A stretch of DNA of 20,036 nt from assembly GCF_000264995.1 (NCBI RefSeq), contig NW_006767449.1:1-20036 (forward strand). Direction: 5' to 3'. Below, piece after piece: positions 2,752 to 20,036 of the stretch (positions are counted from its first letter, which is position 1; every line of letters starts with the position of its first letter). Source of the stretch: Punctularia strigosozonata HHB-11173 SS5. Its lineage: Eukaryota; Basidiomycota; Agaricomycetes; Corticiales; Punctulariaceae. The position numbers were made by a program, and so were the translations under genes. Under the pieces are notes generated by a model that did not search any database, was not told where the DNA came from, and worked only from the letters and a program-made list of their open reading frames with translations.

Positions 2752-2913
2752 ATTTCTCTGCTCTACTTAATGTACACGATTCTACCCACCCGGAACACGT
2801 CAAGCCGAACTTTATCCCGCGCCGAAGCATTGTGACATCATCGTAAGACGAGTTCCGACCTACTGGGAACGGCTGCTCGATTACGCATCTTATCTCCTGC
2901 CTTGAACCGCAAC

Positions 2914-4323
2914 ATGGAAAGCGAACGTCCGCTGCAGGGCAAGTTGGCTTTGATTACGGGATGCACGTAAGTATCAGGCGAACCTCTGTCGCACCTGCGG
3001 GCTTCGGCTTGTCTTGGATGACATCGACATATGCCCAGCGGAGGGATTGGCAAAGCCACCGCGCTCGCGCTCGCCAAACGGGGATGCTCCATCGCGGTGC
3101 ACTACCATCGCAACGCCGAGGAGGCCACGAAGCTCGTCGCCGCGCTGGGCGTCAAAGCGGCCGCGTTCCAGGCCGACCTGTCGTCGTACGACGAGGCGCG
3201 GTGGCTGCACGCCGAGGTCGTGCGCGAGCTCGGGCACCCTGACATCTTGTACAACAACTCCGGCATGACAGGAACGCGGATCGGGCCCCGGGGAGATATC
3301 GGCGACATGAGCGTCGACGAGTTTGAGCGGACGTGGAGGACGAATACCGGGACCGCCTATCTGGTATGGAGGGGGGAGGTGCCTCGTCTGCGAGTTTCGG
3401 CTCACCACCTTGTTCATGCCCATACACCGCTATAGCTGACGCAGCTGTGCATCCCGCACATGGAAGAGCAGAAATGGGGAAGGATCATCTTCTGTTCGAG
3501 GTTCGAGCTCTGACTTCGTCTGCGCCGAAGGTGTTCCACTGCTTACGCTCTTGGCCTACGCGTCAGCGTCGCTGCCGGTGAGCAAACTCGGCTGCTATCA
3601 GTTTCTTTTTTTTTCGAGTGCGCTCACTCATACGCGTCTTAGGAACGGGAGGTGTCATCGGTTCGTCGATGGCCATTCGTGTACCAGCGCCCGATGCGAT
3701 GATGCGCTGACCGCCGGCGGGGTCGTTAGGGCCGCACTACGCCAGCTCCAAATCCGCCATGCACGGCCTGGTACACTGGATCGCGCAGAGATACGCCAAA
3801 GACGGCATCGCGAGTGTCCCCATCTCGTCCTCTCTCTCCGTTGCTCCACCGTGAACTCATCCCGTGGGCGACAGACGTGCAACGCGGTGGCGCCGGCGCT
3901 GATCGTCGGTAAGAAATGATCTGTATCGCGGATTCCTTCGACGTTGGAATTCACCTTGGGTCCTTTTTTGTTTTTCTCCTTGCAAGGGACGACGATGATG
4001 GCCAACCCGCCGGATGAACACAAGGTCTGTTGACTCTCGGTGCTTGACTCCGATCAGAGAAAAACGGGATTTGACGCGCGCGCGCGCCAGAGGCTCATAC
4101 CCGTCGGGCGGTTCGGTCAACCGGAGGAGATCGCGTCTATCGTCGAGCTGCTGGTCCTGAACGCGTACATGACGAACAAGGTGACGATTGTTTTCCCCTC
4201 TCCACCGCGCCCCCCCCCCCCCCCCCTCTCCTTTTGCGCTGCCAGCGTACACCGTCGGGTTCGACTGAATCCGTGCCGCAGATCGTCGTGGGCGATGGCG
4301 GGATGCAGCCGACGGCGTTTTAA
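2914..4323 (+). CDS. Short-chain dehydrogenase/reductase (FabG-like)
   Basis: Ten exons give 251 aa, the usual SDR length: 2914-2966, 3039-3363, 3436-3500, 3567-3577, 3643-3660, 3730-3809, 3875-3908, 3987-4024, 4091-4180, 4282-4323. The Rossmann motif T-G-C-T-G-G-I-G is at residues 15-22, the NNAG-type motif is LYNNSG, a Ser pair is at 147-148, and the catalytic Tyr161-x3-Lys165 lies in HYASSKSAM. The C-terminus has IPVGRFGQPEEIAS and VVGDGG, as in 3-oxoacyl-ACP-reductase-like enzymes. It should reduce or oxidise a carbonyl/alcohol with NAD(P)H; the substrate is unknown. Oddities are an 11-base exon, an 18-base exon and an apparent GC-AG intron (3810-3874). Exon 9 could instead start at 4058 (33-base intron, 11 extra residues); 4091 gives the better family length. 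Confidence 0.9.
4210..4226. repeat. Poly-C tract in an SDR intron
   Basis: Seventeen consecutive C lie in the last SDR intron (4181-4281), between its donor and its CAG acceptor. A shorter C11 run occurs at 7802-7812 in an intron of the M20 gene. Such tracts are length-variable and prone to sequencing error, but here they do not touch coding frames. Confidence 0.85.
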
Positions 4324-5981: not shown

Positions 5982-6471
5982 ATCGTCTTTGGGCAGCAAC
6001 TGCGGTCGACGTCGGCGGGGTCGGAGGGACAGAGGCGAGGCTGTCTCCAGGAGCGGGGCTCGGTCCCAGGGCAGGTCTTATAGCGTCGACGGATTCGGAT
6101 AAGAATAGAGTTTCATGACGTGTTTATATCAGCGCGCGATATCGCTCGGGTGCGGCCATCGACACCGGTGCGAGAGATTGGATGTATGCGCGCCTGCTTC
6201 GCTGAACATAGCACGTAGAGCGCGCGATGGTGGAAGGTGAAGGCGCTTGCCGATGGACCATGTGAATACGCGACGGACAACCTCAGGTAGGAGGGTAAAC
6301 GATGTTGACTATACTTTGCGCTACAAACAAGGCTGAATACGCAGGCCCGATAACGCGGTGGGAAAATCTGCCTCCGTTCATCCAGGGGGCATTCATCGAG
6401 CCCCTTGCGTGCCGCTCACGATGCCGGTGCAATACATAACACCTCTGCTCCGTACGCCTTGATCGCGAGCG
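5982..6471. promoter_or_regulatory. Divergent promoter region
   Basis: These 490 bases lie between the start codons of the leftward membrane-protein gene and the rightward M20 gene, so both promoters must be here. No convincing TATA box or factor site can be singled out. The regulatory role is inferred from gene layout only. Confidence 0.45.
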
Positions 6472-8381
6472 ATGGCGAACACTGATGAGAGCAAGCTGGA
6501 GCGCATCAGGGCGGCGTCGCACGCCTTGCTGCCCGAATGCATCGCGTTTCTGCAGGATCTCGTCCAGATCGACACCACCAACCCGCCGGGGTTGAAGTGA
6601 GCAGGGCTCGATACCGGTTCTGTCCGCGGCTGCACTCGAAGCGCTGACGCGGACGCGTCCATAGCTATCGACGGATCGCGACGGTCATCAAGGACAAGCT
6701 CGACCAACTCGGATACGACGAGACGGAGCTGCTCGAGGTTGCGCAGTCCGGTTCGTCCCAGCGTCGTTTACGTCTGATCGGATTTTCCTGATGAATACGG
6801 GTTGTCTAGACCTCCCCACCTTGGCCCCGCATTTCGACGGACATGAGCGTGTCAACGTGCTTGGACGCCTGAAATCGAAGTCGGCTTCTCCCATCACCGC
6901 CGCAGGCAAGAACAGGGAGCAAGTACTACACTTCAATGGGCATACCGTATGCTGCTCGGTGTTGTCTATGCTCAGAGGATGATGGATCTCTATGACAGGA
7001 CGTCGTGCCCATTGGCTCACGCGATACATGGACCCACGATCCCTTCGGTGCAGAGATCGAAGACGGCGTGATATACGGACGCGGCGTGTCCGATATGAAG
7101 GTGCATACACGCGAACTATCCCACCGCGCTCCGTTCGACGCTCACGAAAATCGCGCCTTCGTCACCGTCTAGGGAGGTCTGGCGGCACAGGTGCGTGCCC
7201 AAGATATATCATCATATATGCGCATATATTTACCCGTCTCTGACTCGCACAGATCTACGCCGTGGAAGCCGTCCGTCGTGCGGGACTCACCCTGCGCGGT
7301 ACCGTCGAGCAAAGCGGCGTCGTTGACGAAGAGACGACCGGCGTGCGCAACGCAGGTAGGTCGCGGATCTCGCGCCGACTTCGAGGACATCTTGCTCAGA
7401 TCCGGATCAGGAGCCGGCTGGCTCATCGAACAAGGCTACTGTTCCGCCGACAAGACCGACGCCGTCATTATTACCGGTAAGCATTCGCACCCCACCTTCT
7501 TCCTCTCTCTTTTTTTTGTTTCTGACCTCACGCCAACAGAACCGCTCAACGTCGACAACCTCTGCTGCGGCCACCGCGGCACGCTCTGGGGCACGATCAC
7601 CTTCCACGGCATCGGCGCGCACGGCGCGATCCCCCAGCGCGGCGTCAACGCCGTCGAGCACGCCGCGCTCTTCGTCACCCGCTGCAAAGAGCGCTTCGCG
7701 CCGCTCCTCCAAGGCCGACGGGACGAGCGCGTGATCCCAGAAGAGGCGCGGGGCAGCAGCATGACCTTCACCGTACGCAGCTCCCCGTCCCTTCCTCCAT
7801 GCCCCCCCCCCCTCTCCACCTTTCCTCCTTAAACCCCCGCTCATTCCGGGTCCCACCCGCAGACCTTCCACGGCGGCACGAACCCCAACTCGGTCGCGGA
7901 CCGCTGCGCGCTCTCGTTCGACCGCCGGCTCGTCCCGGGCGAGACGCTCGACGGCGCCCGCGGCGCCATCCACGCCCTCCTCGCCGAGCTCGCGTCGACC
8001 GTGCCGAACTTCGCATACGAGTACGCGGAGACGTACCAAACCGAGCCGGTCTGGGTCGACCCGGACCAGCCGTTCTGCCGGACGATGCGCCGCGCGATCG
8101 CGCGCGCGGCGGGCGCGGCGGACGCGGGCGTGGTGTGCTCGCCCGGGTCGGACGACCAGCGGTTCTTCGTACGCGCCGGGATCGGGCGCACGGTGGTGTA
8201 CGGACCCGGGAATATCAGGTGAGTTATCGGACTCGCCCCCCCTGGCTTTTGGAGCTCACGAACGCTGGGGGGGTTCAGGAACGTGCATAATCGCGACGAA
8301 GCGCTGTTGCTGGAGGATCTGAGGCAGAGCGTGGAGGCGATGGCGATAGCGGCATGCGAGTTCCTCGGGGTAGACGACTAG
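6472..8381 (+). CDS. M20 family metallopeptidase (ArgE/DapE-like)
   Basis: Ten exons splice to 442 aa, usual for the family: 6472-6596, 6665-6750, 6810-6946, 6999-7100, 7173-7190, 7253-7355, 7411-7476, 7540-7772, 7863-8218, 8279-8381. Metal-site motifs are complete. FNGHTDVVP supplies His115 and catalytic Asp117. [10 protein letters not shown] supplies the bridging Asp148. VVDEETTG supplies Glu182 (general base) and Glu183. ITEPLN and the C-terminal NVHNRDE supply further ligands. [13 protein letters not shown] marks the dimerisation domain. The enzyme should hydrolyse an amide bond with two zinc ions, as in acetylornithine deacetylase, succinyl-diaminopimelate desuccinylase or carboxypeptidases; the substrate is not readable. 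No signal peptide is seen, so it is probably cytosolic. An 18-base exon (GGLAAQ) is conserved family sequence, which supports the splice model. Confidence 0.92.
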
Positions 8382-8963: not shown

Positions 8964-10348
8964 ATGGACCTCAACGACCGGCTCACAAGCGGGCGACTAC
9001 CAGTGCCTCACGCACCGCTCATACCCACGAACCAGATGGCCTCGGTGAGTACAGCAAAAACATTCATCCTACCGCTCCTCACCATATCAAGAAGGTGCCT
9101 TCATCTGCAATCGTCGAAACTTCATATCCACCCACACGTGCAGGAAAGCGATCTCGATCCTCTTCCGTGCCAGAAAAACGCCATACGAAACGTCGTCGCG
9201 TGGACGATGGATCTCGAAGAGAAAGGGGGACCACGGTTCACCGCGCCCTGGACGATCTCAAGTTTTTGCAAGAACGGAAGGGAAATGTGCTCCTTCTTGT
9301 GGCAGAGATGCAGCAGGGCATCAACCGCATGGAGGACGGTCTTGTCGACCTAGTAGTGACGGGCGAGCGGGCTCGCCAACGCGGGTACCCCTTTACGGGG
9401 GGCGCAGATCGTGTTGGGCGCACTGGAGTCAACCTGTGAGTATCGCCTGTCGTTCTCCACTTACTCCTTCTCATGGCTTTCAACCGTAGGCTTCCGAGGG
9501 GAGACTCCAACTTATCCCAGCGACTGGAATCACAACAAGAGCTCACGAATCTAGGGACTTCCGACATCCATGCTCGCACATCCGAGACGGCCAGTGTGCA
9601 TCAAGTTCGCGTCCGAAGAAATCCCGAAGAACATTCTCGCGATGAGCTCGCGTCCTTATATCGCGCTCACATCGACACTCCTCCAATCCCCTGCACTTGT
9701 CGACGGACCGCGCTACAGCAGGAACACGCCAAGATCACAACATACCTGCGCCCCCGCCCCCGCATTGGCGTGGATGCACAAGGAATGGCCTTCGAGGACT
9801 GGACTTCCCACCCGCCCTTCCGCACCTTGCCGCGGATCCTGAGGAAAGAGCAACTCCTCCGGATGCGCTCATCCTCCAGCATATACGCCGATGTCACACC
9901 TGACGCACATGTTTACCCAGTGCGAATTTGGCCGCGACACCCCAGGGCATCCTCGACGGGTTTCATCCTCCAATTTCGACATATAACTCCCACCGTATCC
10001 GACTGGATGGAATCTTGGCACGTTGAAAGGGGACGCTGCTTGTCCTGCATAGCGAGGGCGATGCGCACTTTCCCTCCGTGGATCATCAAATTCAGTCCTT
10101 TTCACGGGGCGATAGAAGATGGGAATCCTGCATTCACGAACCAAAGACAGGACGAGCTCGTCGAGTGGGATGAAGAACGGAAGCGTTGGCGCCACCTTGT
10201 CTTCGACCACTATCGATGGCTTCCTGTTGAGGAGCTGGAGGAGAGACCGAGCGACCGCACCGCCGATGCCCAGACCGTTAATGGATTACACGATACACCT
10301 GTCCCTGATTCCTATACCGTTGCTTACTGGCGGATAATAGATACGTGA
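8964..10348 (+). CDS. Family A protein, copy A1 (unrecognised Cys-motif nuclear-type protein)
   Basis: Three exons (8964-9044, 9092-9435, 9490-10348) give 427 aa. The second exon has a tandem acceptor (CAAGAAG), so it may start at 9092 or 9095. In order, the protein has a basic NLS-like stretch (GKRSRSS, then KRHTKRRRVDDG), a helical segment (ALDDLKFLQERKGNVLLLVA), an EELxxLYR-type helix (SRDELASLYRAHI), C-T-C-R-R-T, the block RPRIGVDAQGMAFEDW, a CLSC pair in RGRCLSCIARAMRTFPPW, and a C-terminal VEWDEERKRWRHLV...DHYRW. The Cys pairs suggest metal binding. It matches A2 along most of its length and shares blocks with A3. I do not recognise the family; nuclear location and DNA or chromatin binding are inference. 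K1 begins within about 80 bases of its stop. Confidence 0.75.
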
Positions 10349-10423
10349 CGATAAGTACGTATCGCGCGCTCATCTGCATCGCCATGACAAAGCACCGATA
10401 GCAGCTCGCGTGCCATTCGATAG

Positions 10424-12485
10424 GTTGTGCACAGCTCGCAAACGAGACGGTAACCAGTCAGATGCTTGCACGAAGATTTCATGCGATAGCCTCGAGGTCG
10501 CAGTCTACGTACGTCCTGTGATCCTTCGAATCATGAACCATCTTCCCTGATAACTTCAACAGATAAATGGAGTGCATCTCATACCTGGAGAGCCACGCAA
10601 ACTCCAGTCCAATGACGTTATTCGGTTCAATGGTGCAGGTGTGTAGGCATATCATTAGTCGTGTTTGCGGGCTCTTAATCGCTGGTATCTTGAAGAGTAC
10701 ATCTATCGGCACTTAATTGGTGCTCAAGATACGCCCTACGGTGTCGAGGCCGAACGGTACGATGTCCGCGAACCCATAGCGGTCGGAGAGGCAGCACCAA
10801 GTACTGTATACCGATTGCATGACATTCAAACACTGACAGTCTTCCCAGGCCGTTGGATCGCACAGCACTTGCACACCCGCCAGGCTGTCGTCGTCAAGCG
10901 TATCACGGTACCGACTAGAAATCTCGACGAAGTTGCGTCTAATATCAGGATATGCGATGAGCTCCTCCACCGGAATATTGTGTCTCTGTTCGACTGCTAT
11001 ATGCATCCCGAGAATCTCCAGGGCTCCGAGAGACAAATAAGTAAGCGATGCGCGCGCCAGGTGGTCTCATTCATAACTTACGCTACCTATTATCATCAGG
11101 CATTGTGACGTCTCTCGCTCCTCATGGAAACCTACACGACTTCATCAGGATAGGAAATGGGAAGCTCGGTGTGCCTCTCTCCATGTTTTGGTTTGACTGC
11201 TGCTGAATCTCTCCTTGATTACAGGCGAATCTCTTGCTCGACCCGTCATGGCTCAACTCATGGACGGACTGATGGTGAGGGACACGCACATCGATGTTGA
11301 TTGCAATTGACTGACTCATGCTAGTATATGCATGATCAAGGCATACTCCACTGCGACATGAAGCCCGAGGTTAGTATTGTGGCTACCGTTCGTCTGGCTG
11401 ACTGACAATGGAGTCGCTCAGCATGTCCTCGTATACGGTTTGGGCTCAGCTGGTCCCATAGTCAAGATCAGTGGTCTCGGGCTCGCCGCGCGCTCCGGGA
11501 AGAATGAAGATAGAGAGCTCAGTCCATCTCTTCGTCAGGCGATGATGAAGAGTGCCGCATGGGCTGCACCTGAATCACTGAACTATGAGCATACGGAGCT
11601 CAGCGATGCCTTCAGCTTAGGAGCCATCATGTTTTTCATGTGAGTCGTTTGCACGCGTTCCTTCGTCCATGGCGCTTACCACGTTCGTTCGGAAAGCCAC
11701 TGGGGTAAGCCGCTTTATGACATAGAAGGAGGCATGTTCTTCGAAGAAATTATGCAAAGGAGGCGCACGAATTTCACTAAATTACGGAGGCAGATGATGA
11801 GCTCCAACGGTAATCCATCATCCTTGTTTGTCCTCAGAGAATGCTTATAGATTCTTCCTTTGCAGCATGTGACCTCATCGAAAGCCTTACGAAGGTGTCC
11901 ATGAGCGAACGAATCGGCTTACGCGAAGCGCGACGACACGCCTGGTTCAACGGATGTCAAGTCCCCCCTCCATTCTCTGCCCAATACGAGTACGACGACC
12001 CTCTGGTTCAAGGATTTATCGCTGGGGGCGGGAGACCTGCCGTTAGCAACCATGATCCCGTCAACAAGAACGGTCTTCTGGACTTCAGCGACTGCTTCTC
12101 CGCCGACAGCGATTCTCTGTTTGATGCTGGCCTTATCTCCGAGAGCGAATTCGAGGCACGCCGGGGGCTTGAATGGGATTTTCTGTATTCTCTTGTGCAT
12201 CCGACTTTCTTCGGGTCTGGGGGCGACAACGGCGCGCTTGCTAGCGATATTGCCCCGGAACCAAGCTCCTCGCTCGCCACGGTCCGTGTCATTCCGATCC
12301 CTGGAGCACAGGCTTGTGAACCCGTCGCACCCGGGCCGCCGTCGTTTGTCGAGTCGGAACGTTACTACTACGAAGAAACAGACGTTAAAGGCTGGGATCC
12401 CGTGAGCGAAACCTTCGTTGCCTTGGCCGACAAACCCAACTGGCGCGGACCGCGGGTGGGTGGACTTATCGCTACTCCCCGGTGA
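10424..12485 (+). CDS. K1: FHA-kinase-like gene with degenerate active site (5' end unresolved)
   Basis: Ten exons keep one frame: 10424-10508, 10563-10638, 10696-10800, 10849-11040, 11100-11168, 11225-11274, 11325-11369, 11422-11639, 11697-11809, 11866-12485. The first two end an FHA-like domain (YINGVHLIPGEP, SNDVIRF), the layout of Rad53/Chk2-type kinases. The kinase domain has a poor G-loop (VGEAAPS), VVVKRI with the ATP Lys, APHGNLHDFI, YMHDQGILHCDMKPEH, ISGLGLA where DFG should be, WAAPESL and DAFSLGAIMFFM. The catalytic-loop Asn is His and the Mg-binding DFG Asp is Ser, so it is predicted to be a pseudokinase. A tail of about 190 residues follows. No in-frame ATG precedes the FHA part, so upstream exons are missing or lie under A1. 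A GTGGGT donor at 12456 could extend the tail to 12697. Confidence 0.75.
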
Positions 12486-12707
12486 CGCACGATCGCTCGG
12501 AGCGCGTCCTCTCGTCGGCCAAGCGCAATTCGATCAAGCTGAACTGCGCGCGAGCCGCGACGGTACGGAAAGGTCTCGCTACATCGCCGGACCCGGTGAA
12601 CACGGCGGCGAAGGCACTGGCACGCGGTAGTGTCCATCTTGCAGACGTGAGGTATACCGATCCTCTAGTGTACATTTTGGGTCATCACAAGACATGAAAA
12701 TTATGCT
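12486..12707. other. Possible extension of the K1 tail
   Basis: If a GTGGGT donor at 12456 is used with an AG acceptor ending at 12502 or 12523, the K1 frame continues to a stop at 12697 with a basic tail (SSAKRNSIKLN and onward). Otherwise this is a short intergenic spacer. Transcript evidence would decide; the sequence allows both. Confidence 0.3.
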
Positions 12708-13067
12708 TTATTTTATGCATGTATCCTCGGTCTCGACGCGTGTTACCGCTTGTCTGCCCTTCGCCTTCGATGCGTTTGATATCCGCCCGATGAATCGCCT
12801 GCTATTGGGCCAATCGAGCCCCCATGCCGCGCATCCCACCGCCGAGATTCGGTCGATAGCATGCGAAGGCAAGAGCTTCGGCAGGTCGGGAGGGTGGTCG
12901 GAGCAGAACTGCTCAGCGGCCTCGTAGTCCGCATCGGATGCCTCGTTGTAGAGTCCGTCGGCGTAGCTTTGCTCGGGTGCGGCAGTCCATTCGGGCGGGG
13001 GTGCGTTCACGTCAGGTTCGGCGTTGGATGAGGGTTTCCCGAAATGTTGTCTCAGCCACGACGGCAT
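12708..13067 (-). pseudogene. Truncated N-terminal fragment of a fungal SPRY-type protein (tentative)
   Basis: The leftward frame of 119 codons has ordered, protein-like sequence: MPSWLRQHFGK, APPPEWTAAPEQSYADGLYN, ASDADYEAAEQFCSDHPPDL, LLPSHAIDRISAVGCAAWGL, SRRFIGRISN and RVETEDTCIK. From memory this resembles the N-terminal region that precedes a SPRY/B30.2 domain in some Agaricomycete proteins, but I cannot confirm that. The frame stops just where such a protein would go on, and only about 220 bases remain before K1. No SPRY core is visible downstream on this strand. It is therefore likely a broken or truncated copy caught between the two A-K units, or alternatively a small intact gene. 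Confidence 0.5.
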
Positions 13068-13653
13068 GGCGGATTCGTACTTGATTGCGATTTCAAGCCG
13101 AAAATGTAGGGTAAAATGAAGCAGTCCGCGCCGCGTTCTCAGCCTCGTCTTATACGCATCTGTGCCAATCTCGCAGTCGTCCCCGAACTGTGCCGGAAGC
13201 TATCGTGGTCGCAATCAAGACATGGTGGGACCTCGTAAATGCTGTCCAAAAGCAATGCAGTCCCTCTTGGCGCGTGAAAACATCTTTCCAGCCGTCGACG
13301 ACGACTTGGACAACAACAAGCAGTCCTACAACAAGAGTCTTTCTCACACATGTCTCCGCATCTTCAACAATAGTGTTTGTTCCATGTAGGGTCGTCGCAA
13401 TCCATTCGTAACAACAGACACACTACAATCTCAGGCGACGCACCCTGCCGTCGTTCCCGTCATACTGGAAATTTAACATTTGCTTGACTGTTTGACCCTT
13501 ACTACCTAAGATACCTTGCGCGAGGACGATCCGTACCTTCGCAGTACAGTTACAAGCGTTGGACAGTGACCGACGCGGAACTCAAGTTTGATCTTCGCCT
13601 TCGGAAGCTTTCCCTGGCGCCTGGTACGCCCGGGCTCTCCGACTCCAGACTCG
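13068..13653. other. Intergenic region upstream of A2
   Basis: This region should hold the promoter of A2. A 56-codon rightward frame without ATG (13491-13661, with TVTDAELKFDLRLRKLSLAP) looks protein-like and overlaps the A2 start in another frame, but no splice model ties it to A2. Nothing else is supported. Confidence 0.4.
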
Positions 13654-14969
13654 ATGACTGATACAAGCATAGACTCGATGAACCATCTCATGCCGCAACA
13701 CACGGCTACTTTCACCAGTATTCCCGGTCCCTCATCACCTACACGCACCCTTCCACCCGCACTGGCGAAGCCGTCGCTCCAACGGACGCAAGGCAAGAAA
13801 CGAGCCAGATCTCCTACTTTCATGGACGAAGGTACCAAACGAACTCGAGCGGAGGGCGGTCGGCGAGATAGGAAGGCCCGTGTTGTGCGTGCCTTGGCCG
13901 AGATCGAATGGCTGCGCGACCGCAAGCAGGACGTCGTTGCAGCCACCACGGAGGTGAAGCAAGGCTACGAGCGGATGAAGGCTGCGATCATCAGCCTAGG
14001 GAAGGAGCGTGCCCGCCGTAGGGATGCGGCGACAAACAAGCTGCTGTGAGTTATTATCGCGTGTGTAGCTGGTCGTCATCTCAAGTTGTCCGACGCAGTT
14101 CCTCCGAGGAGGCTAGACTATTCGCAAACGCTAGGCCAGAACAGCGCGAGGCCTTTTTTCGCATGAAGTTTGGTGCAAAGAAACCCTATCGAGAACATAC
14201 AGCCGAGGAGCTCGAGGCGTTATACCGCGCCCGGGCCCGCCTACCCAAACGCCCGGAAGATTATACACCTGAGGAGCTTGCGCATCTGTATAGATCCAAG
14301 ATTGACGCAATTCCCATCAATTGCACCTGCCGACGGACTACGCTACAGCAAAACCGGGCTAACAATTCATCGTTCACACATCCCAGACCCCGCATGGGCG
14401 TGGACGCGCAGGGAGTAGCATTCGAGGACTGGTCCGCATGCCCTCCGCAAACTGGCACGGAGCATGCTGCTCTGCTCGTGACCGAATTGGCTCTTCGCCA
14501 TGAAATATCCACGAGTAGGGATCGTGATATGCGCATCCTTCCGATACCGCCCAACCCACGACGTCCCAGGGCATTCTCGACGCGATTCATCCTTCAACTT
14601 CGACATGTACCTTCGCGAGTGTTTGATACGCTCGAGGCATGGCATGTCGAATATGGGCGGTGCTTGACCTGCGTAGCCAAAGCTATGCGAACGCTCCCTC
14701 CATGGATCATTGAATGGTACTCCCTTGAAGAAGTAATGGAGAACGGGAATCCTGTGTTCGTGAATCTCAGGCAGGACGAGGTGGTCGAGTGGGATGAATC
14801 GCGGAAAGGTTGGCGTCATCTGGTCCTTGATCACCATCGATGGGTTCCCGTAGAAGAATTGGAGGAGAGACCAAGCGACGGTACCGCCGATCCGAAGATT
14901 GTCAATGGATCTAACTTCAGTATTCCCGAATCGTATAACATCGCGTACATGCATTTTGTAGACACATGA
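13654..14969 (+). CDS. Family A protein, copy A2
   Basis: Two exons (13654-14045, 14099-14969) give about 420 aa. The GTGAGT intron sits at the position of the second A1 intron, with the same phase. The order is as in A1: an NLS-like GKKRARSP and GTKRTR, a helical ALAEIEWLRDRKQDVVAATT, NCTCRRTTLQQ, RPRMGVDAQGVAFEDW, a SACPP Cys that is His in A1, GRCLTCVAKAMRTLPPW, VVEWDESRKGWRHLV and HHRWVPVEELEERPSDG. Unlike A1, it carries the EELxxLYR helix twice (TAEELEALYRA and TPEELAHLYRS), a probable internal duplication. A1's first small exon is not visible here; the ATG at 13654 is the first in frame, so the true N-terminus may differ. Decayed kinase exons (K2) follow about 35 bases after its stop. 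Function unknown. Confidence 0.75.
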
Positions 14970-15002
14970 TTCCTGAGGTACTCGCGATTGTACAAACTGC
15001 TC

Positions 15003-15300
15003 GTGTGACGCGTAATCCTTCCCTCATGGAAACCGTGGCACCATCCGAACTTCATCCTTATCCTATTACCTTTTCCTTGCATACATGGTGTAGAGCGACG
15101 CTGTAGGACCACGAGGCGGTTGCGGATGGATGATGATCCAGGATTAGGTATCTGGTCAACACGCTCTCCAATTTGAGAAGCTCACAGCCTGTTAGGAGTA
15201 TTTGCATGGGCGTGATATCATCCACCTCAATCTGAGGCCAGAGGTAATCTTATTTTGTTAACATCTGATGGCAACATTGTCCGCGAGGGCGTTAACTGGA
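15003..15300 (+). pseudogene. K2: remnant of a K1-like kinase gene
   Basis: Short blocks match successive K1 exons in order. CCCTCATGGAAACC near 15024-15037 matches the PHGN exon. GAGGCGGTTGCGGATGG near 15113-15129, followed by a GTATCT-like donor, matches the exon ESLARPVMAQL. A 15-codon block YLHGRDIIHLNLRPE at about 15200-15244 matches K1 YMHDQGILHCDMKPE, with the same length and a GT donor at the same codon. The next bases, read in a shifted frame, give NLILLTSDGNIVREG, typical of kinase strands beta7-beta8. The catalytic Asp is Asn and the Lys is Arg. The N-terminal FHA and lobe exons and everything after beta8 are missing. It follows A2 as K1 follows A1. It is clearly non-functional. 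Confidence 0.65.
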
Positions 15301-15317
15301 CTCGTGGCATTGACACA

Positions 15318-15350
15318 GGCACCGGCACCGGCACCGGCACCGGCACCGGC
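15318..15350. repeat. GGCACC hexanucleotide repeat, about 5.5 units
   Basis: Thirty-three bases of perfect GGCACC repeat lie where the K2 remains meet the 3' end of A3. Read leftward in the frame that continues A3 homology after a frameshift, it would encode a Pro-Val repeat. It is probably length-polymorphic. Confidence 0.85.
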
Positions 15351-15371
15351 TGTTGGCGCCCTTCCCATTCT

Positions 15372-16584
15372 TCAAAAGAAATCCAACGAGCGATGGTGGT
15401 GCGACACCATATACCGCCATCGCCTCTCCCCGTCGTCCCATTCGATCAGCGCGTCTGGATAGTAATTCACAAAGACCATCTTCCCGCCCTCATACCCCAA
15501 TTCTCTCGCATGCGCGACCCACCGCGGCAGCGTGCGCATGGCTTTCTGTTCGCAGTACGCGCACCAATTCCTGCGGCGGTGCAGCGTCGTGTACGGTATC
15601 TCGCCAAAGCTCGCGTACAGCGGCGCCCACTCCGAGTCAGGCGCGGTGCGGCGCTGAATTGGCATGGGCATCGTGCCGAAGCCGCCGCGCGCGAGCTGCG
15701 TTTGGGCTGGGCGGTAGGAGTCCAGATGGAGCCGGAGGGCCTGCTCACGATTCGTGAGCTGGAACCGACGGCGGGGGTCATGCGACGGCGGGGGCCATGC
15801 GACGGCGGGGGCGGACATGGGCTTCTGTCGTCGAAGGCGTGACCCTGCTCGTCGATGCCCATGCGTGGGCGGAGCAACCTCTCTGTGTCCGGGTTGGGCC
15901 GGCCCTGAATGCGCGGACATGTGCAGCAGGTCGTGTCGTCACCACAAAAAAGCCGAGCAGCGTGCGGTGGTAGGAATGAAGCGGTGTCCCTGTTCAACCG
16001 GGGTACCGTTGGCAGTGTCGGGCTCCATCCGTCGCAGCGTGCCAACGACTGCCTTAAGGTCGGATTCTCCTCCATTCATCCGGATTATTGGAGGCGTCGC
16101 AGAGTGTTTTAGTTTCCTTTGCTGTGTGGGACTGTGCGGACAGCCGTCAGGGAGGAGGAGACACGCGGTCGCTAAAGAAGCACGTACCTGGGTGGGTCTG
16201 CAACGTCAGATCCTTACACTCTCAAGCGAGGAACATGCGTGTGGCGAGCCTCTCCATGTCGCTCATCAGGGCCTGAGAGAGAGCCGCAGCGCTCATTGCC
16301 GCTTTCTCAGTCTTTGCTATGAGCATATGTAGCTTCCTCGGCTCGTGCCGTAGCTCTGTGTCCGGAGCTAATAGATCGTCATGAACAGCATCGTTCCACG
16401 GCGGCGAGGCTTGCTGCAGCGCTCAGCCTTGGTCGGCCCATTTCCGCGTTGGCCGACGATCTTGGGGCGCTGGTGATATCATGGTAATCACCTCGTCTTC
16501 CCCTGGCGGTGTGGGCGTTTCGAAAACCAAGCGATCTCTCTGTGCCGATCCGAGAAGTGCTGGTCCTTTCTTCGCGTCTGTCAT
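15372..16584 (-). pseudogene. A3: inverted, decayed family A copy
   Basis: Read leftward from an ATG at 16584, one frame runs MTDAKKGPALLG to KWADQG, hits TGA at 16425, continues ALQQASPPWNDAVHDDLLAP and a helical LIAKTEKAAMSAAALSQALM, and hits a second in-frame TGA at 16224 before a GTACGT donor (16187). Downstream blocks carry family A signatures: CCTCPRI, RPRMGIDEQGHAFDD, SPCPP, CAYCEQKAMRTLPRW, LIEWDDGERRWRYMV and HHHR. They lie in two frames, broken at an A6 run (15946-15951), at a 17-base tandem duplication (15767-15812) and again after HHHR, where a shifted frame reads RWISFEEWEG like A2's RWVPVEELEE. With at least four lesions it is a pseudogene. It diverges from A1 and A2 more than those two do from each other. 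Confidence 0.7.
15767..15812. repeat. 17-base tandem repeat, 2.7 units, inside A3
   Basis: Units at 15767-15783 and 15784-15800 differ at one base (GACGGCGGGGGTCATGC versus GACGGCGGGGGCCATGC), and a partial third unit runs 15801-15812. Because 17 is not a multiple of three, one unit more or fewer changes the A3 frame. A3 homology is in one frame before it and another after it. Confidence 0.85.
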
Positions 16585-16599
16585 CTCGCGAGCTCCGTA

Positions 16600-16875
16600 C
16601 TAGTACTGAAAGGCCCATAGGTTAATCACTGCCCACCCGTCGAGATCGCGACAAAGGATACTCGCTCGAACGTCGTCCTCAAGCTCCGCCGAATGCTTTT
16701 GACTGGTACCGATATCCATGGGGTACACAACAATGCGATTCAAGGCGAGCGTGCTATGTAAGTATCCCCAGCGGTCCGCGCACTGGCTGATGACAAGATG
16801 TGGCCAGCGCTTGACGGAGTCAGACGGACGGAGGGACGCGCGCGCGGCAACATTCCCACGAATACCGAAAGACAC
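16600..16875 (-). other. Leftward ORF with protein-like C-terminal part, unrecognised
   Basis: The frame ends VKRWPHLVISQCADRWGYLH, then LNRIVVYPMDIGTSQKHSAE and a DLDGWAVINLWAFQY terminus. The composition is balanced and unlike a random GC-rich frame, so it may be the end of a truncated gene whose upstream part was replaced by the A4 relict. It lies 16 bases upstream of the A3 ATG on the same strand and could be a misplaced A3 exon. I recognise no family. Confidence 0.3.
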
Positions 16876-17014
16876 AACGAGCCAGGTCTCCTACGTGAAC
16901 ATCGTACCAAACGGTCTCGTGTGTTAGGGCAGCCAGCGAGATAGGCAGCACTTGGCCGAGATTGAACGGCTGCGCGATCACAAGCGAGTAGACTACTAGA
17001 GTAGCCGCAGTTGC
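16869..17014 (+). pseudogene. A4: relict of a family A gene
   Basis: This short segment aligns by eye with A2 near 13790-13945. Both contain CAACGAGCCAGGTCTCCTAC-like sequence, then GTACCAAACG, then GGCCGAGATTGAACGGCTGCGCGAT (A2: GGCCGAGATCGAATGGCTGCGCGAC), encoding (H/A)LAEIE(R/W)LRD(H/R)K. Indels break the frame and it stops at TAG after HKRVDY. The rest of the gene, including the Cys core, is absent. Confidence 0.65.
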
Positions 17015-17030
17015 TTTTTTTCTAGATCAG

Positions 17031-17300
17031 ATGACGCGACTCGCGAGCGCGGGTGTGACGCGAGTAAGATCAGAACTGATCAAAGTGCGTTCACACGGTC
17101 AGTTTCTCGAGCGGCACAGTCAGAGAGTTCAAAGTCTCGTTATTGAGCAACTCGAGAAGATACAAAAAAGTCGCCCCTCCTCCGTCAAGCATCGGCGTAC
17201 TTATACTCTATCGTAAGTACCTGACCATATGGAGGTGGAGCATGCTGATGAATCAAAGGGGGGGACGCGTAAGCGTCCAGCGAACAAAAAAGGAAAGTAG
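17031..17300 (+). other. Small ORF with in-frame stop, unrecognised
   Basis: From the ATG at 17031 the frame runs 61 codons with a helical middle (QSLVIEQLEKIQKS), meets TAA at 17214, and continues in the same frame to a basic end (DESKGGTRKRPANKKGK) and TAG at 17298. It could be a broken small gene or the degenerate downstream part of A4. No family is recognised and coding status is doubtful. Confidence 0.25.
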
Positions 17301-17394: not shown

Positions 17395-19623
17395 TCACTT
17401 GCGACGGCGCTCACGCCAGATCAGCTCCCTCTTCATCTTTGCCCGCACGCTCCCCATCATGGCGTAGTTGATCACCTCCATGTCCGAAAACGAGTAGGCT
17501 TGACCATTGCGCAGCTTGACGTCTGCCGTAGGAGGTTTGCGCGAATCCGGACCATTTCCCGACGACCGATGATTGGATGGTTCGCGGCGCGAGCGACGAC
17601 GATTGCGGATGGCATCCCGGACGGCATCATTGAAAAGGATGGATCGAGGTGAGGAGCCTTGAATGTCTGCGCGGGTCTCGTTCTCGGCGCTAATGTCATG
17701 GACGAGTAGCGAGAGGGATGCCTCCGATGGGTCGATGACGTTGCGAAGGGTGGTGCGTAGCTCGTCGTAACCGGGCGGAACAGGCTCCTCAAGAATTGCG
17801 GAGCCGTCGCGGATGCTGTCGTCGTAGCGCAGGAGTCTGTCGACGTAGCGCCAGTGCCAGACGGTGAATGGGCTTCCGATCGATGGGGGAGGGACCCGGT
17901 CGATCACGAACTCGAGGGTACGCGTGTCGAAGTCAATGCCGCGATGGACCGTGATGAGGTGAGTGACATCCTCGCCGGGTGACGCCTCGCGAGACGCACC
18001 ACGACGAGGAGTAGCGGCGCGATCCGAACGGGAGTTTGAGCGGACGGGTGTCGTGTTGGTCGAGGAGTTGGGGGGTTGGTTGGAGTCGGAGGACGAGGGC
18101 ATGCAGCGAGGAAACGAAGAACGGTAAGTCTTGACGTGATTCTTGGGGAACGTGAGTTGACGAGTCTTGAAGGATCGGGCGTTAGCCCCCGTTGGCCTAA
18201 ATACGCGCCCTCCAGCCGGACGGTCATCCAATACGGTCTCGTACCGAATCCCGCCGACGAAGACTTGAGGATCATCGGTATCGAGCTTTCCTTTACCTTC
18301 TGGAAGCTCGCCCACGCTGCTGACACCTTGCTCATCTAGATACAGCTTCAACTGCTCGAGGCCGTCGATCCGATCAAGCGGTAGCCAGGTAATGTCACCC
18401 GCTTTCCATTTGATTTCGAATACCGCGGCTAAACCTTTACCTTTGTGTGACAGAATTCGTTCTACCGCCCATTCGCCTCCGTCTTCGCCAAAGTCCGCCA
18501 CCTGCATCTCTGCGCGCCCGGGGAATAATCGGTCATCGTTGGCTACATGCACTCGCAGAAGAGACGAGTGGAATACGGGATGCACGCCTCGCTGCAACAA
18601 GCGCGCAGGTAAATCTACGCGAAACGAGTTGTTTCCGTAGTCTTTTGAAATAATGTAAGGCCCTATATATTTTGGCACGAGCTTGCGCGCGCGCCCTTTG
18701 GGAAAGCTAATATTCTTAGTCGAGATGTAGACCATGTCGCCCACTGTAAATGGGGCAGGCCGGCGATGCCGATTAGCGGCTCGCGTCTGTTTCACTCGAG
18801 CCTCAAGAATTGCATCGTGTGCTGCCATTATCGCGTTTCGCATACGCTGCGCAAAAACTCGAACGCCAGGGTACTCGGTGTCACCTGGCTGATCCCATAT
18901 CATGGACCTAGGCATCCGACCGGTGTCTAGGAAGAACGGTGCGTAACCCGTACTTTCCGATCGTGCCGAGTTGATCGCGAACTCGATGCCAGGTAGTTTC
19001 GAGACCCAGTCCTTCTGATCGGGGCTGACGCAAGCACGAATCATTTGTGTGATGGTCCGATTTGCACGTTCCGTGGAACCGTCACTCTCCGGGTGGTAGG
19101 CACTCGACATATTCAGTTGTATACCTAACATTTTGTTGAAATTCTGCCAGAATGCGCTCGTGAACAAGACGTCACGATCACTGACGATGCGCTTCGGCAA
19201 CCCGTGTAACCGGTAGACTTCTGAAAATACTAGTTCCGCTATGTCCTTCGCCCGGTAATCCTGTCGGCTCGGGATAAGATGAACTCGGCCGGTGAGCAAA
19301 TCTATCACTACGGTAATTTCGTCATAAGACGCATTTCTGTCTTTCGACACAGGCAGTGGACCCACGAAGTCCATTCCGATTGCCTCCCATGGACGGGTAG
19401 GTACCGGTAGTGGATTGAGCAATCCATACGGTTTCTGATTGTTAGGTTTGCTCTTCCTGCAGGTCACGCAGCTTTCGCAGAAAGCCCTTACAGCAGCTAT
19501 CATCGACTTCCACCACACGGAACCTCGTAGATACGCGATTGTTTTTGATGGCCCAAGGTGAGCTAAGATTGAGTGCGCACGCGATATGATGATCTCGCGT
19601 GCAGATCGGGCCCCTATCCAATG
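17395..19623 (-). mobile_element. Ty3/gypsy chromoviral pol fragment: integrase, chromodomain, long tail
   Basis: The leftward frame is open from 19623 to TGA at 17395. It starts inside the integrase zinc module (RAHSILAHLG, then CESCVTC) and has the catalytic core with MDFVGPLP, SDRD and YHPESDGSTERANRT. The last two acidic residues have exactly 35 residues between them (DD35E). A GPY/F motif (GPYIISKDYGNNSFRVDLP) and a chromodomain (EWAVERILSHKGKG, IKWKAGDITWLPL) follow. About 300 further residues, basic and Ser/Pro-rich with a folded-looking block (LEFVIDRVPPPSIG, FTVWHWRYVDRLLRYDD), extend beyond the chromodomain, unlike most family members. Protease, RT and RNase H are absent: an in-frame TAG and unrelated repeats lie upstream. 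No LTR was identified. The integrase frame itself is intact, so truncation may be recent. Confidence 0.88.
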
Positions 19624-20036
19624 CTAGTTGCTTGAATAATTAACAAGCTGTGGACATACATCCATTTGCCTTCGTGTACAAAGGTGGATCCAGTGGAGTT
19701 ACAACATCCTTAGGTAAAGCATCCCTTACGGTATGACACGGTAGAGCTACAACATGACTGGGCATCACCATAATTGAATGATTACACTACAACAATATTG
19801 GATAGGGCTGTACTGTTGGATGTTGTGACAAGGAGCAGACCCCACAACAATATTGGATATGTCTGCATTCTTGGACAACGACGGTGGTGGGCAGTGGTAT
19901 ACCAGCGCACTACAACAATAGTGGGCAGGCAAGAGGAGCATAAAGCTATGACGGCGGGCACTACATCAGTTGACAACGGTGGTGGGCTCGTCGTATACCA
20001 GCGCACCACGACAATGATGGGCAGGCAAGGTGAGCA
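19624..20036. repeat. Degenerate tandem-repeat array at the right edge
   Basis: Two long copies with a period of about 98 bases lie at 19874-19940 and 19972-20036. Both hold GGTGGTGGGC, then GTATACCAGCGCAC, then ACAATxxTGGGCAGGCAAG. A shorter direct repeat, ACAACAATATTGGATA, is at 19789-19804 and 19844-19859. Weaker TACAACAT copies occur near 19700 and 19748. The array abuts the truncated pol and continues off the window. It could be a satellite or an LTR/subterminal repeat. Confidence 0.7.

What the first reader, a model, noticed from the sequence alone, without database searches (positions are those of the whole stretch)
8964..15300. Duplicated two-gene module: unknown Cys-motif protein (A) followed by an FHA-pseudokinase (K)
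A1-K1 and A2-K2 share order, orientation and tight spacing, and blocks in K2 match successive K1 exons. Conserved linkage through duplication suggests a co-inherited pair, for example partners in one complex, a selfish pair or a lineage-specific signalling module. The linkage is seen; the functional pairing is inference. This is my best candidate for an undescribed system.
Basis: partly seen in the sequence, partly recalled or inferred. Interest (0 to 1): 0.8.

Follow-up and report, generated by a model that had tools for sequence, protein, structure and literature searches.

The report
Repeated kinase gene pair in fungus
A fungal genome carries about twenty copies of the same two-gene unit, an unknown and perhaps nuclear protein followed by a protein kinase, duplicated together for so long that the two genes may well work as a pair, although what they do is not known.

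Summary
The window starts contig C17 of a 33.6-Mb fungal genome with 34 A places on five contigs. Of 31 that could be judged, 21 have a continuous K directly downstream on the same strand, and a 22nd has a K with an inner inversion. A and K trees of the 21 pairs share 14 of 18 splits (shuffles: mean 0.26, maximum 4); the 22nd pair is discordant. Both genes are under purifying selection. So the pair has mostly duplicated as one unit. A has no Pfam match above cut-off; it has conserved [C/H]xC...CxxC cysteines and an NLS-like motif. K is a CAMK-like kinase. Two labels need correcting: "pseudokinase" fits one clade (7 of 21 pairs, including this window), while 14 pairs keep both catalytic aspartates; "FHA" is unproven. 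In the window K1 lacks its first exon and K2 is one exon relic, while A1 and A2 are intact. Best reading: a kinase-partner module, possibly nuclear. Boldest reading not excluded: a writer/reader non-self-recognition locus. Function and spread across species are untested.

The parts
8964..10348 (+). A1: intact three-exon model, 426 aa; NLS-like motif KRSRSS...KRRR, then a conserved domain with CTC ... GRCLSC
   Evidence: 85% identical DNA copy at C17:491 kb
10444..12485 (+). K1: kinase gene without its first exon and start codon; pseudokinase (VVVK kept, HCD, SGLG); a tail of about 170 residues after the kinase
12708..13067 (-). D: small open frame (about 119 aa from its first Met) divergent from A2; copies upstream of the A genes at 474 and 477 kb; no Pfam match at E 0.1
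13654..14969 (+). A2: intact two-exon model, 420 aa, closest to the A genes at C17:474 and 477 kb
15197..15249 (+). K2 relic: the catalytic-loop exon only
   Evidence: 89% identity to C17:479518-479570; above 8 shuffles
15370..16205 (-). A3: broken, inverted A copy; the stretch 15370-16500 is 84% identical to C17:487.6-488.7 kb
16876..16985 (+). A4: relic of A exon 1 (68% identical to A2), inside a stretch 93% identical to C17:489.9-490.3 kb

Best explanation
A-K is an old two-gene module that was expanded in this fungal lineage. A encodes a probably nuclear protein with a metal-binding-like cysteine core. K encodes a CAMK-like protein kinase with a conserved N-terminal domain of its own. Most likely each K acts on or through its own A: either K phosphorylates A, or A is the adaptor that brings K to a nuclear target. 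Duplication as a unit keeps matched partners together. In one clade K has lost the DFG aspartate and would act as a binding scaffold. Shown: repeated same-order linkage, mostly congruent trees, purifying selection, kinase residues kept in some clades and lost in another. Inferred: nuclear location, metal binding, physical or enzymatic contact between A and K.
For: 21 of 31 testable A copies have a continuous K directly downstream, same strand (spliced-alignment scores 500-1581; 24 control stretches 91-119); a 22nd (C17_560) has a K with an inverted inner segment. Distance from A stop to first aligned K codon 32-1161 bp, the smallest being the truncated K1. A and K trees of 21 pairs share 14 of 18 splits (2000 relabellings: mean 0.26, maximum 4); Mantel rho 0.60, 0 of 9999 permutations as high. 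Purifying selection: A core dN/dS 0.18-0.27 in the 6 of 10 planned pairs that could be computed; K 0.13-0.41 in 9 pairs, K1/K493 kinase part 0.26. Both catalytic aspartates kept in 14 of 21 pairs; Pkinase E 1.8e-49. NLS-like motif upstream of 29 of 34 A cores against 25 of 196 control stretches. In alignment A2 (21 of 34 places) the second Cys and both CxxC Cys are invariant and the first is C or H by my reading, as metal ligands often are.
Against: Adjacent genes that duplicate as one unit of about 6 kb give congruent trees even without working together. A stands without a whole K at nine of the 31 places; K1 here has no start codon and K493 has a frameshift, so A does not always need its K. 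The K of C17_560 (its inner segment) groups with the K of C17_576 (support 100), while its A lies outside A 566/576/557: that pair is discordant. In the C17_9/C17_491 pair A and K differ in synonymous distance. No fold was found for A (pLDDT 40.3). The NLS expression was loosened after a first look. There are no expression, interaction or cross-species data.
Confidence: 0.45

Rival explanations
1. Linkage by duplication only. A and K happen to be neighbours and were copied together in tandem and segmental duplications; they have unrelated functions.
For: A regular head-to-tail array of six units on C10 with A spacing 5.6-6.1 kb; large segmental copies between the window and C17:473-496 kb; lone A genes.
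Against: The same adjacency is found on five contigs between modules whose K genes differ at most synonymous sites (pS 0.68-0.83 in 10 between-module K comparisons). Among the 40 largest families of open frames in the fetched loci I saw no other gene family that accompanies the modules across contigs. K keeps constraint even after loss of the DFG aspartate.
Confidence: 0.22
2. Writer/reader non-self recognition. Each module marks a target by phosphorylation (K, the writer) and checks the mark (A, or the N-terminal domain of K); cells that receive a foreign module after hyphal fusion die or are blocked. Many diverged, tightly linked pairs are what such a system would need.
For: Tightly linked kinase plus partner, many diverged copies, mostly congruent trees. 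A linked two-gene writer/reader locus exists in an ascomycete (het-V), and such a system was proposed on theoretical grounds for basidiomycetes, where the mechanisms are called completely unknown (PMC8229728, passages only).
Against: No cell-death or executor domain in A or K in the Pfam scans made. Purifying, not diversifying, selection between paralogues. No strain polymorphism data; a phospho-reading FHA domain is unproven.
Confidence: 0.17
3. Selfish killer/protector pair (meiotic drive or toxin-antidote): one gene harms, the other protects, and linked copies spread and decay.
For: Clustering, many copies, frequent decay. A places without a whole K (9) outnumber K places without an A (2: a fragment at C17:57.8 kb and one at 470 kb), and in this window A is intact while K is broken, as expected if K were the harmful and A the protective part. 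In Spok a kinase domain gives resistance (PMC6660238, passages only).
Against: The imbalance is small and three of the nine A places are fragments. No toxin-like domain was found in the Pfam scans made. Strong constraint over long divergence is unusual for short-lived killers (general knowledge). No segregation data.
Confidence: 0.1

Closest known systems
het-V locus of Podospora anserina (PaMt1 methyltransferase and PaMt2 MLKL-TUDOR)
   Same: Two genes at one locus, one a modifying enzyme, in a fungus (passages of PMC8229728)
   Different: Methylation, not phosphorylation; has an MLKL executor; here about 20 diverged copies, no executor domain found, no incompatibility data
Spok spore killers
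   Same: Kinase plus a conserved cysteine cluster, multi-copy, fungal (passages of PMC6660238)
   Different: A single protein with a PD-(D/E)XK nuclease and a kinase said to be closer to eukaryotic-like kinases; here two genes, a regular Pkinase domain, no nuclease match
CHK2/RAD53-type FHA kinases (recalled)
   Same: CAMK-like kinase domain after an N-terminal domain with a weak FHA-like end
   Different: FHA not confirmed; the genome has a separate place with FHA and kinase matches at C5:1.496 Mb
FunK1 fungal kinases (PF17667; the link of name and accession is recalled)
   Same: Expanded kinases of fungi
   Different: K scores below the PF17667 cut-off and far better with Pkinase

Membership tests
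Eukaryotic protein kinase (PF00069) | Full-length kinase domain above cut-off with the catalytic aspartates | tested here: met
   C10_1581 K: E 1.8e-49, 168.9 bits against 31.7; 14 of 21 pairs keep the HxD and DFG-type Asp; the C17/C4 clade (7 of 21) loses the DFG Asp
CHK2/RAD53 FHA kinases | FHA domain before the kinase | tested here: inconclusive
   Partial hit 16.0 bits under cut-off 20.7; 2 of 14 N-termini at E up to 0.5, best 0.009; none of the 9 listed own-genome FHA matches lies at a K (exon by exon); hhalign against five own-genome FHA stretches, some with unspliced introns, Prob 1.1
CHK2/RAD53 FHA kinases | CAMK-group kinase domain | tested here: inconclusive
   Best PDB sequence matches are CDPK1 and CaMK1, best E 1.6e-30, 60 of 2371 shown; no kinome tree was made
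FunK1 (PF17667) | Score above the PF17667 cut-off (24.1 bits) | tested here: not met
   14.9 and 19.6 bits in two K, 13.5 bits in a third
Spok | Nuclease and kinase in one protein | tested here: not met
   A and K are separate frames with a stop codon after A at all 21 pairs; no nuclease family in 21 A cores
het-V-like writer/reader locus | Tightly linked modifying enzyme and second gene | tested here: met
het-V-like writer/reader locus | Cell-death executor domain | tested here: not met
   No such Pfam hit in the A and K sequences scanned
het-V-like writer/reader locus | Allelic or presence/absence difference between strains with incompatibility | not testable with these tools
   One genome only

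The most novel reading that the evidence does not exclude
A-K modules are the long-sought kind of non-self-recognition loci of mushroom-forming fungi: linked phospho-writer (K) and reader/effector (A) pairs. Each paralogous module would carry its own specificity, and the pseudokinase clade would be reader-only variants.
Probability: 0.13. Interest if true: 0.92.

Novelty: new variant of a known kind. Interest (0 to 1): 0.55.

Why it matters
A protein family without a Pfam match above cut-off, kept next to one particular kinase family through about twenty duplications, is good genetic evidence for an undescribed partnership. If the pair works by writing and reading a phospho-mark, it would supply concrete candidate genes for basidiomycete non-self recognition, whose mechanisms are called completely unknown in PMC8229728 (passage). 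Even if it is ordinary signalling, it gives a natural series of active-looking kinases and pseudokinases with matched partners.

Tried and rejected
Structure of A: predicted from the two window last exons only; mean pLDDT 40.3, pTM 0.28, so no fold search was made. Relatives elsewhere: viral contigs and genome contigs gave no relative of A; these collections are of viruses, bacteria and archaea, so this says nothing about spread among fungi. PDB: A profile best E 1.0, A2 alone best E 0.052, K N-terminus best E 1.9: taken as chance. PADLOC gave many hits to K (best mad6, 7.6e-45); they cover the kinase domain only and were not taken as evidence of a defence role. A third obligate module gene was looked for among open frames of 70 aa or more; only the 40 largest families were printed and I judged them by eye. 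A+K as one fused gene was considered: A1 ends in a stop codon at 10346-10348, so rejected for this copy. I first counted the K at C17:564 kb as a lone K; one search shows that it is the inverted inner part of the K behind A_C17_560. A weak upstream signal at C6 (188) proved to be noise: 177-213 spread over 3.3-4.1 kb, so scores up to about 213 are not evidence. Papers: eight searches showed no description of this pair in the listings and abstract beginnings shown; two papers were seen in passages only (PMC6660238; PMC8229728). The NLS expression was loosened: a stricter one matched 12 of the first 21 A places before that script stopped.

Full report
Where it is. Searching this one genome made it possible to test the linkage, exon by exon; no other fungal genome is held here.

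What is in the window. A1 and A2 are intact spliced models of 426 and 420 aa. K1 follows A1 directly. Its spliced sequence matches Pkinase at E 3.9e-35, with the DFG aspartate replaced (SGLG). Compared with the nearest copy at C17:490.6-494.9 kb, the stretch between A1 and K1 lacks about 550 bp that contain the likely start codon and first exon of the sister K; the first Met left in the frame lies inside the kinase. K2 is one 53-bp exon relic. A broken inverted A (about 15370-16205) and an A exon-1 relic (16876-16985) complete the cluster. So the window shows two healthy A genes and two damaged K genes. The sister K at 493 kb carries a frameshift; an assembly error cannot be excluded for any single frameshift.

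How often the pair recurs. A protein search with A2 gave 39 matches (lower bound), which I merged to 34 places; with gaps above 50 kb as borders they form nine clusters on C4, C6, C10, C17 and C19. I fetched the surroundings of all 34, in three cases partly withheld, and scored the 4.2 kb downstream with a spliced aligner against six K queries. Twenty-four control stretches scored 91-119; noise in one real stretch reached 213 with longer queries. Twenty-one A places have their own K downstream on the same strand (500-1581). A 22nd, C17_560, scored only 301, because the inner 1.85 kb of its K is inverted; DNA comparison with the K of C17_566 shows both outer parts in the plus and the inner part in the minus orientation. 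Three places could not be judged because much of the stretch is withheld (C17_487-, C10_1509-, C10_1512-). Nine have no whole K: C17_14 (A2, relic only), C17_15-, C17_66, C17_474, C17_495-, C17_548, C17_555, C17_557 and C6_1873; of these C17_15-, C17_66 and C17_555 are themselves fragments. On the opposite strand three of 34 places scored high (C17_15-, C17_495-, C17_560+), through the K of a neighbouring module or the inverted segment just named; high scores upstream come from the preceding module. A 425-aa K query over the whole genome listed 89 matches; outside the known clusters these cover the kinase domain only and look like other kinases. K places without an A are C17:57.8 kb (a fragment) and 470 kb. 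On C10 six modules stand head to tail with A spacing 5.6-6.1 kb.

Old linkage, not one recent event. Trees were made from 31 A rows (three fragments dropped) and 23 K rows. For the 21 pairs 14 of 18 splits are shared, some deep ones included, against a mean of 0.26 and a maximum of 4 in 2000 relabellings; Mantel rho is 0.60 with 0 of 9999 permutations as high. Against this, the 22nd pair is discordant: its K segment groups with the K of C17_576 with support 100, while A_C17_560 falls outside A 566/576/557. A1 and A2 sit in different subclades, each with its own nearest relatives at 491 and at 474/477 kb, so the window's two modules are not one recent duplicate. Most lone A genes sit next to or within paired clades, which suggests repeated loss of K; C17_487 and C17_495 form a clade of their own. 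The K2 relic shows one loss directly. Both genes are constrained: A core dN/dS 0.18-0.27 in 6 pairs (4 further planned pairs could not be computed), A N-termini 0.30-0.44 in 4 pairs, K 0.13-0.41 in 9 pairs. In the C17_9/C17_491 pair the K synonymous distance (0.14) is smaller than that of A (0.29 before the core, 0.43 in the core), which hints at recombination or gene conversion between the two sites.

What A is. The conserved part (alignment A2, 21 of the 34 places; near-duplicates and damaged copies left out) has invariant Arg-Pro-Arg, Gly, Asp, Glu, Trp and Cys columns. By my reading the first of the four Cys positions is C or H and the other three are invariant, as metal ligands often are (inference). 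An NLS-like motif of the type KRxRSP...KRRR is found upstream of 29 of 34 cores with a loosened expression; the same expression is found in 25 of 196 control stretches and 14 of 200 shuffles. Of the five misses three are the fragments C17_15-, C17_66 and C17_555, one (C10_1498-) had only 702 bases to search, and one is C17_477. No Pfam family reaches its cut-off (best E 0.033 among 21 cores), and no PDB relative was found. The fold is unknown: with two sequences the model had pLDDT 40.3.

What K is. The C10_1581 copy is an ordinary-looking protein kinase, closest in sequence to calcium- and calmodulin-dependent kinases among solved structures. Fourteen of 21 pairs keep the HxD and DFG-type aspartates; the seven of the C17/C4 clade all lose the DFG aspartate, and five of these also the HRD aspartate. 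Constraint in the K1/K493 kinase part (dN/dS 0.26) suggests that this form did something useful for much of its history. The N-terminal domain is conserved within the family, but the FHA label is not secured.

What it most likely does. The evidence supports a pair that is inherited together; it does not show contact. The best guess is a nuclear kinase-partner module. Rivals are linkage by duplication alone, a writer/reader recognition system, and a selfish pair; they are weighed in the Rival explanations section. The writer/reader idea rests on a theoretical proposal for basidiomycetes and on het-V of Podospora (PMC8229728, passages), not on data from this genome.

Limits. One genome; no transcripts; gene models of K from a home-made aligner, in which many copies show a frameshift near the glycine loop that may be a missed intron; counts are lower bounds because parts are withheld and the searches score only the best candidates.

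Noticed in passing
window 12708-13067 (-), C17:472483-473421 (-), C17:475399-475959 (-): Small divergent open frame D upstream of A2 and of the A genes at 474 and 477 kb; three copies seen in the fetched loci, no Pfam match at E 0.1.
   Followed up: partly
window 8964-17060 against C17:473-496 kb: The window cluster is a rearranged copy of the 473-496 kb block of the same contig, in segments of 77-97% identity.
   Followed up: partly
C17:561814-565103: The K behind A_C17_560 has an inverted inner segment of about 1.85 kb that is closest to the K of C17_576.
   Followed up: partly
C17:9-12.5 kb and C17:490.6-494.9 kb: A and K of the same sister modules have different synonymous distances (0.29-0.43 against 0.14), which hints at gene conversion.
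   Followed up: no
window 17395-19623 (-): Long open frame resembling the polyprotein of a retrotransposon with an integrase part (read by eye from the translation; no family search made).
   Followed up: no
window 6470-8380 (+) and 2911-4323 (+): By eye, an M20-type peptidase gene and a short-chain dehydrogenase gene lie before the cluster (translations; no family search made).
   Followed up: no
C17:57803-58593: Fragment of the K1 C-terminal tail and 3' flank without an A match nearby.
   Followed up: partly
C4:231002-240848: A family of open frames repeated on both sides of the C4 module, not seen at the other clusters in the printed list.
   Followed up: no
C5:1495.8-1497.1 kb: An FHA match next to a kinase match, perhaps the genome's own CHK2/RAD53-type kinase.
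   Followed up: partly
window 19784-20036: Short imperfect direct repeats at the end of the window.
   Followed up: no
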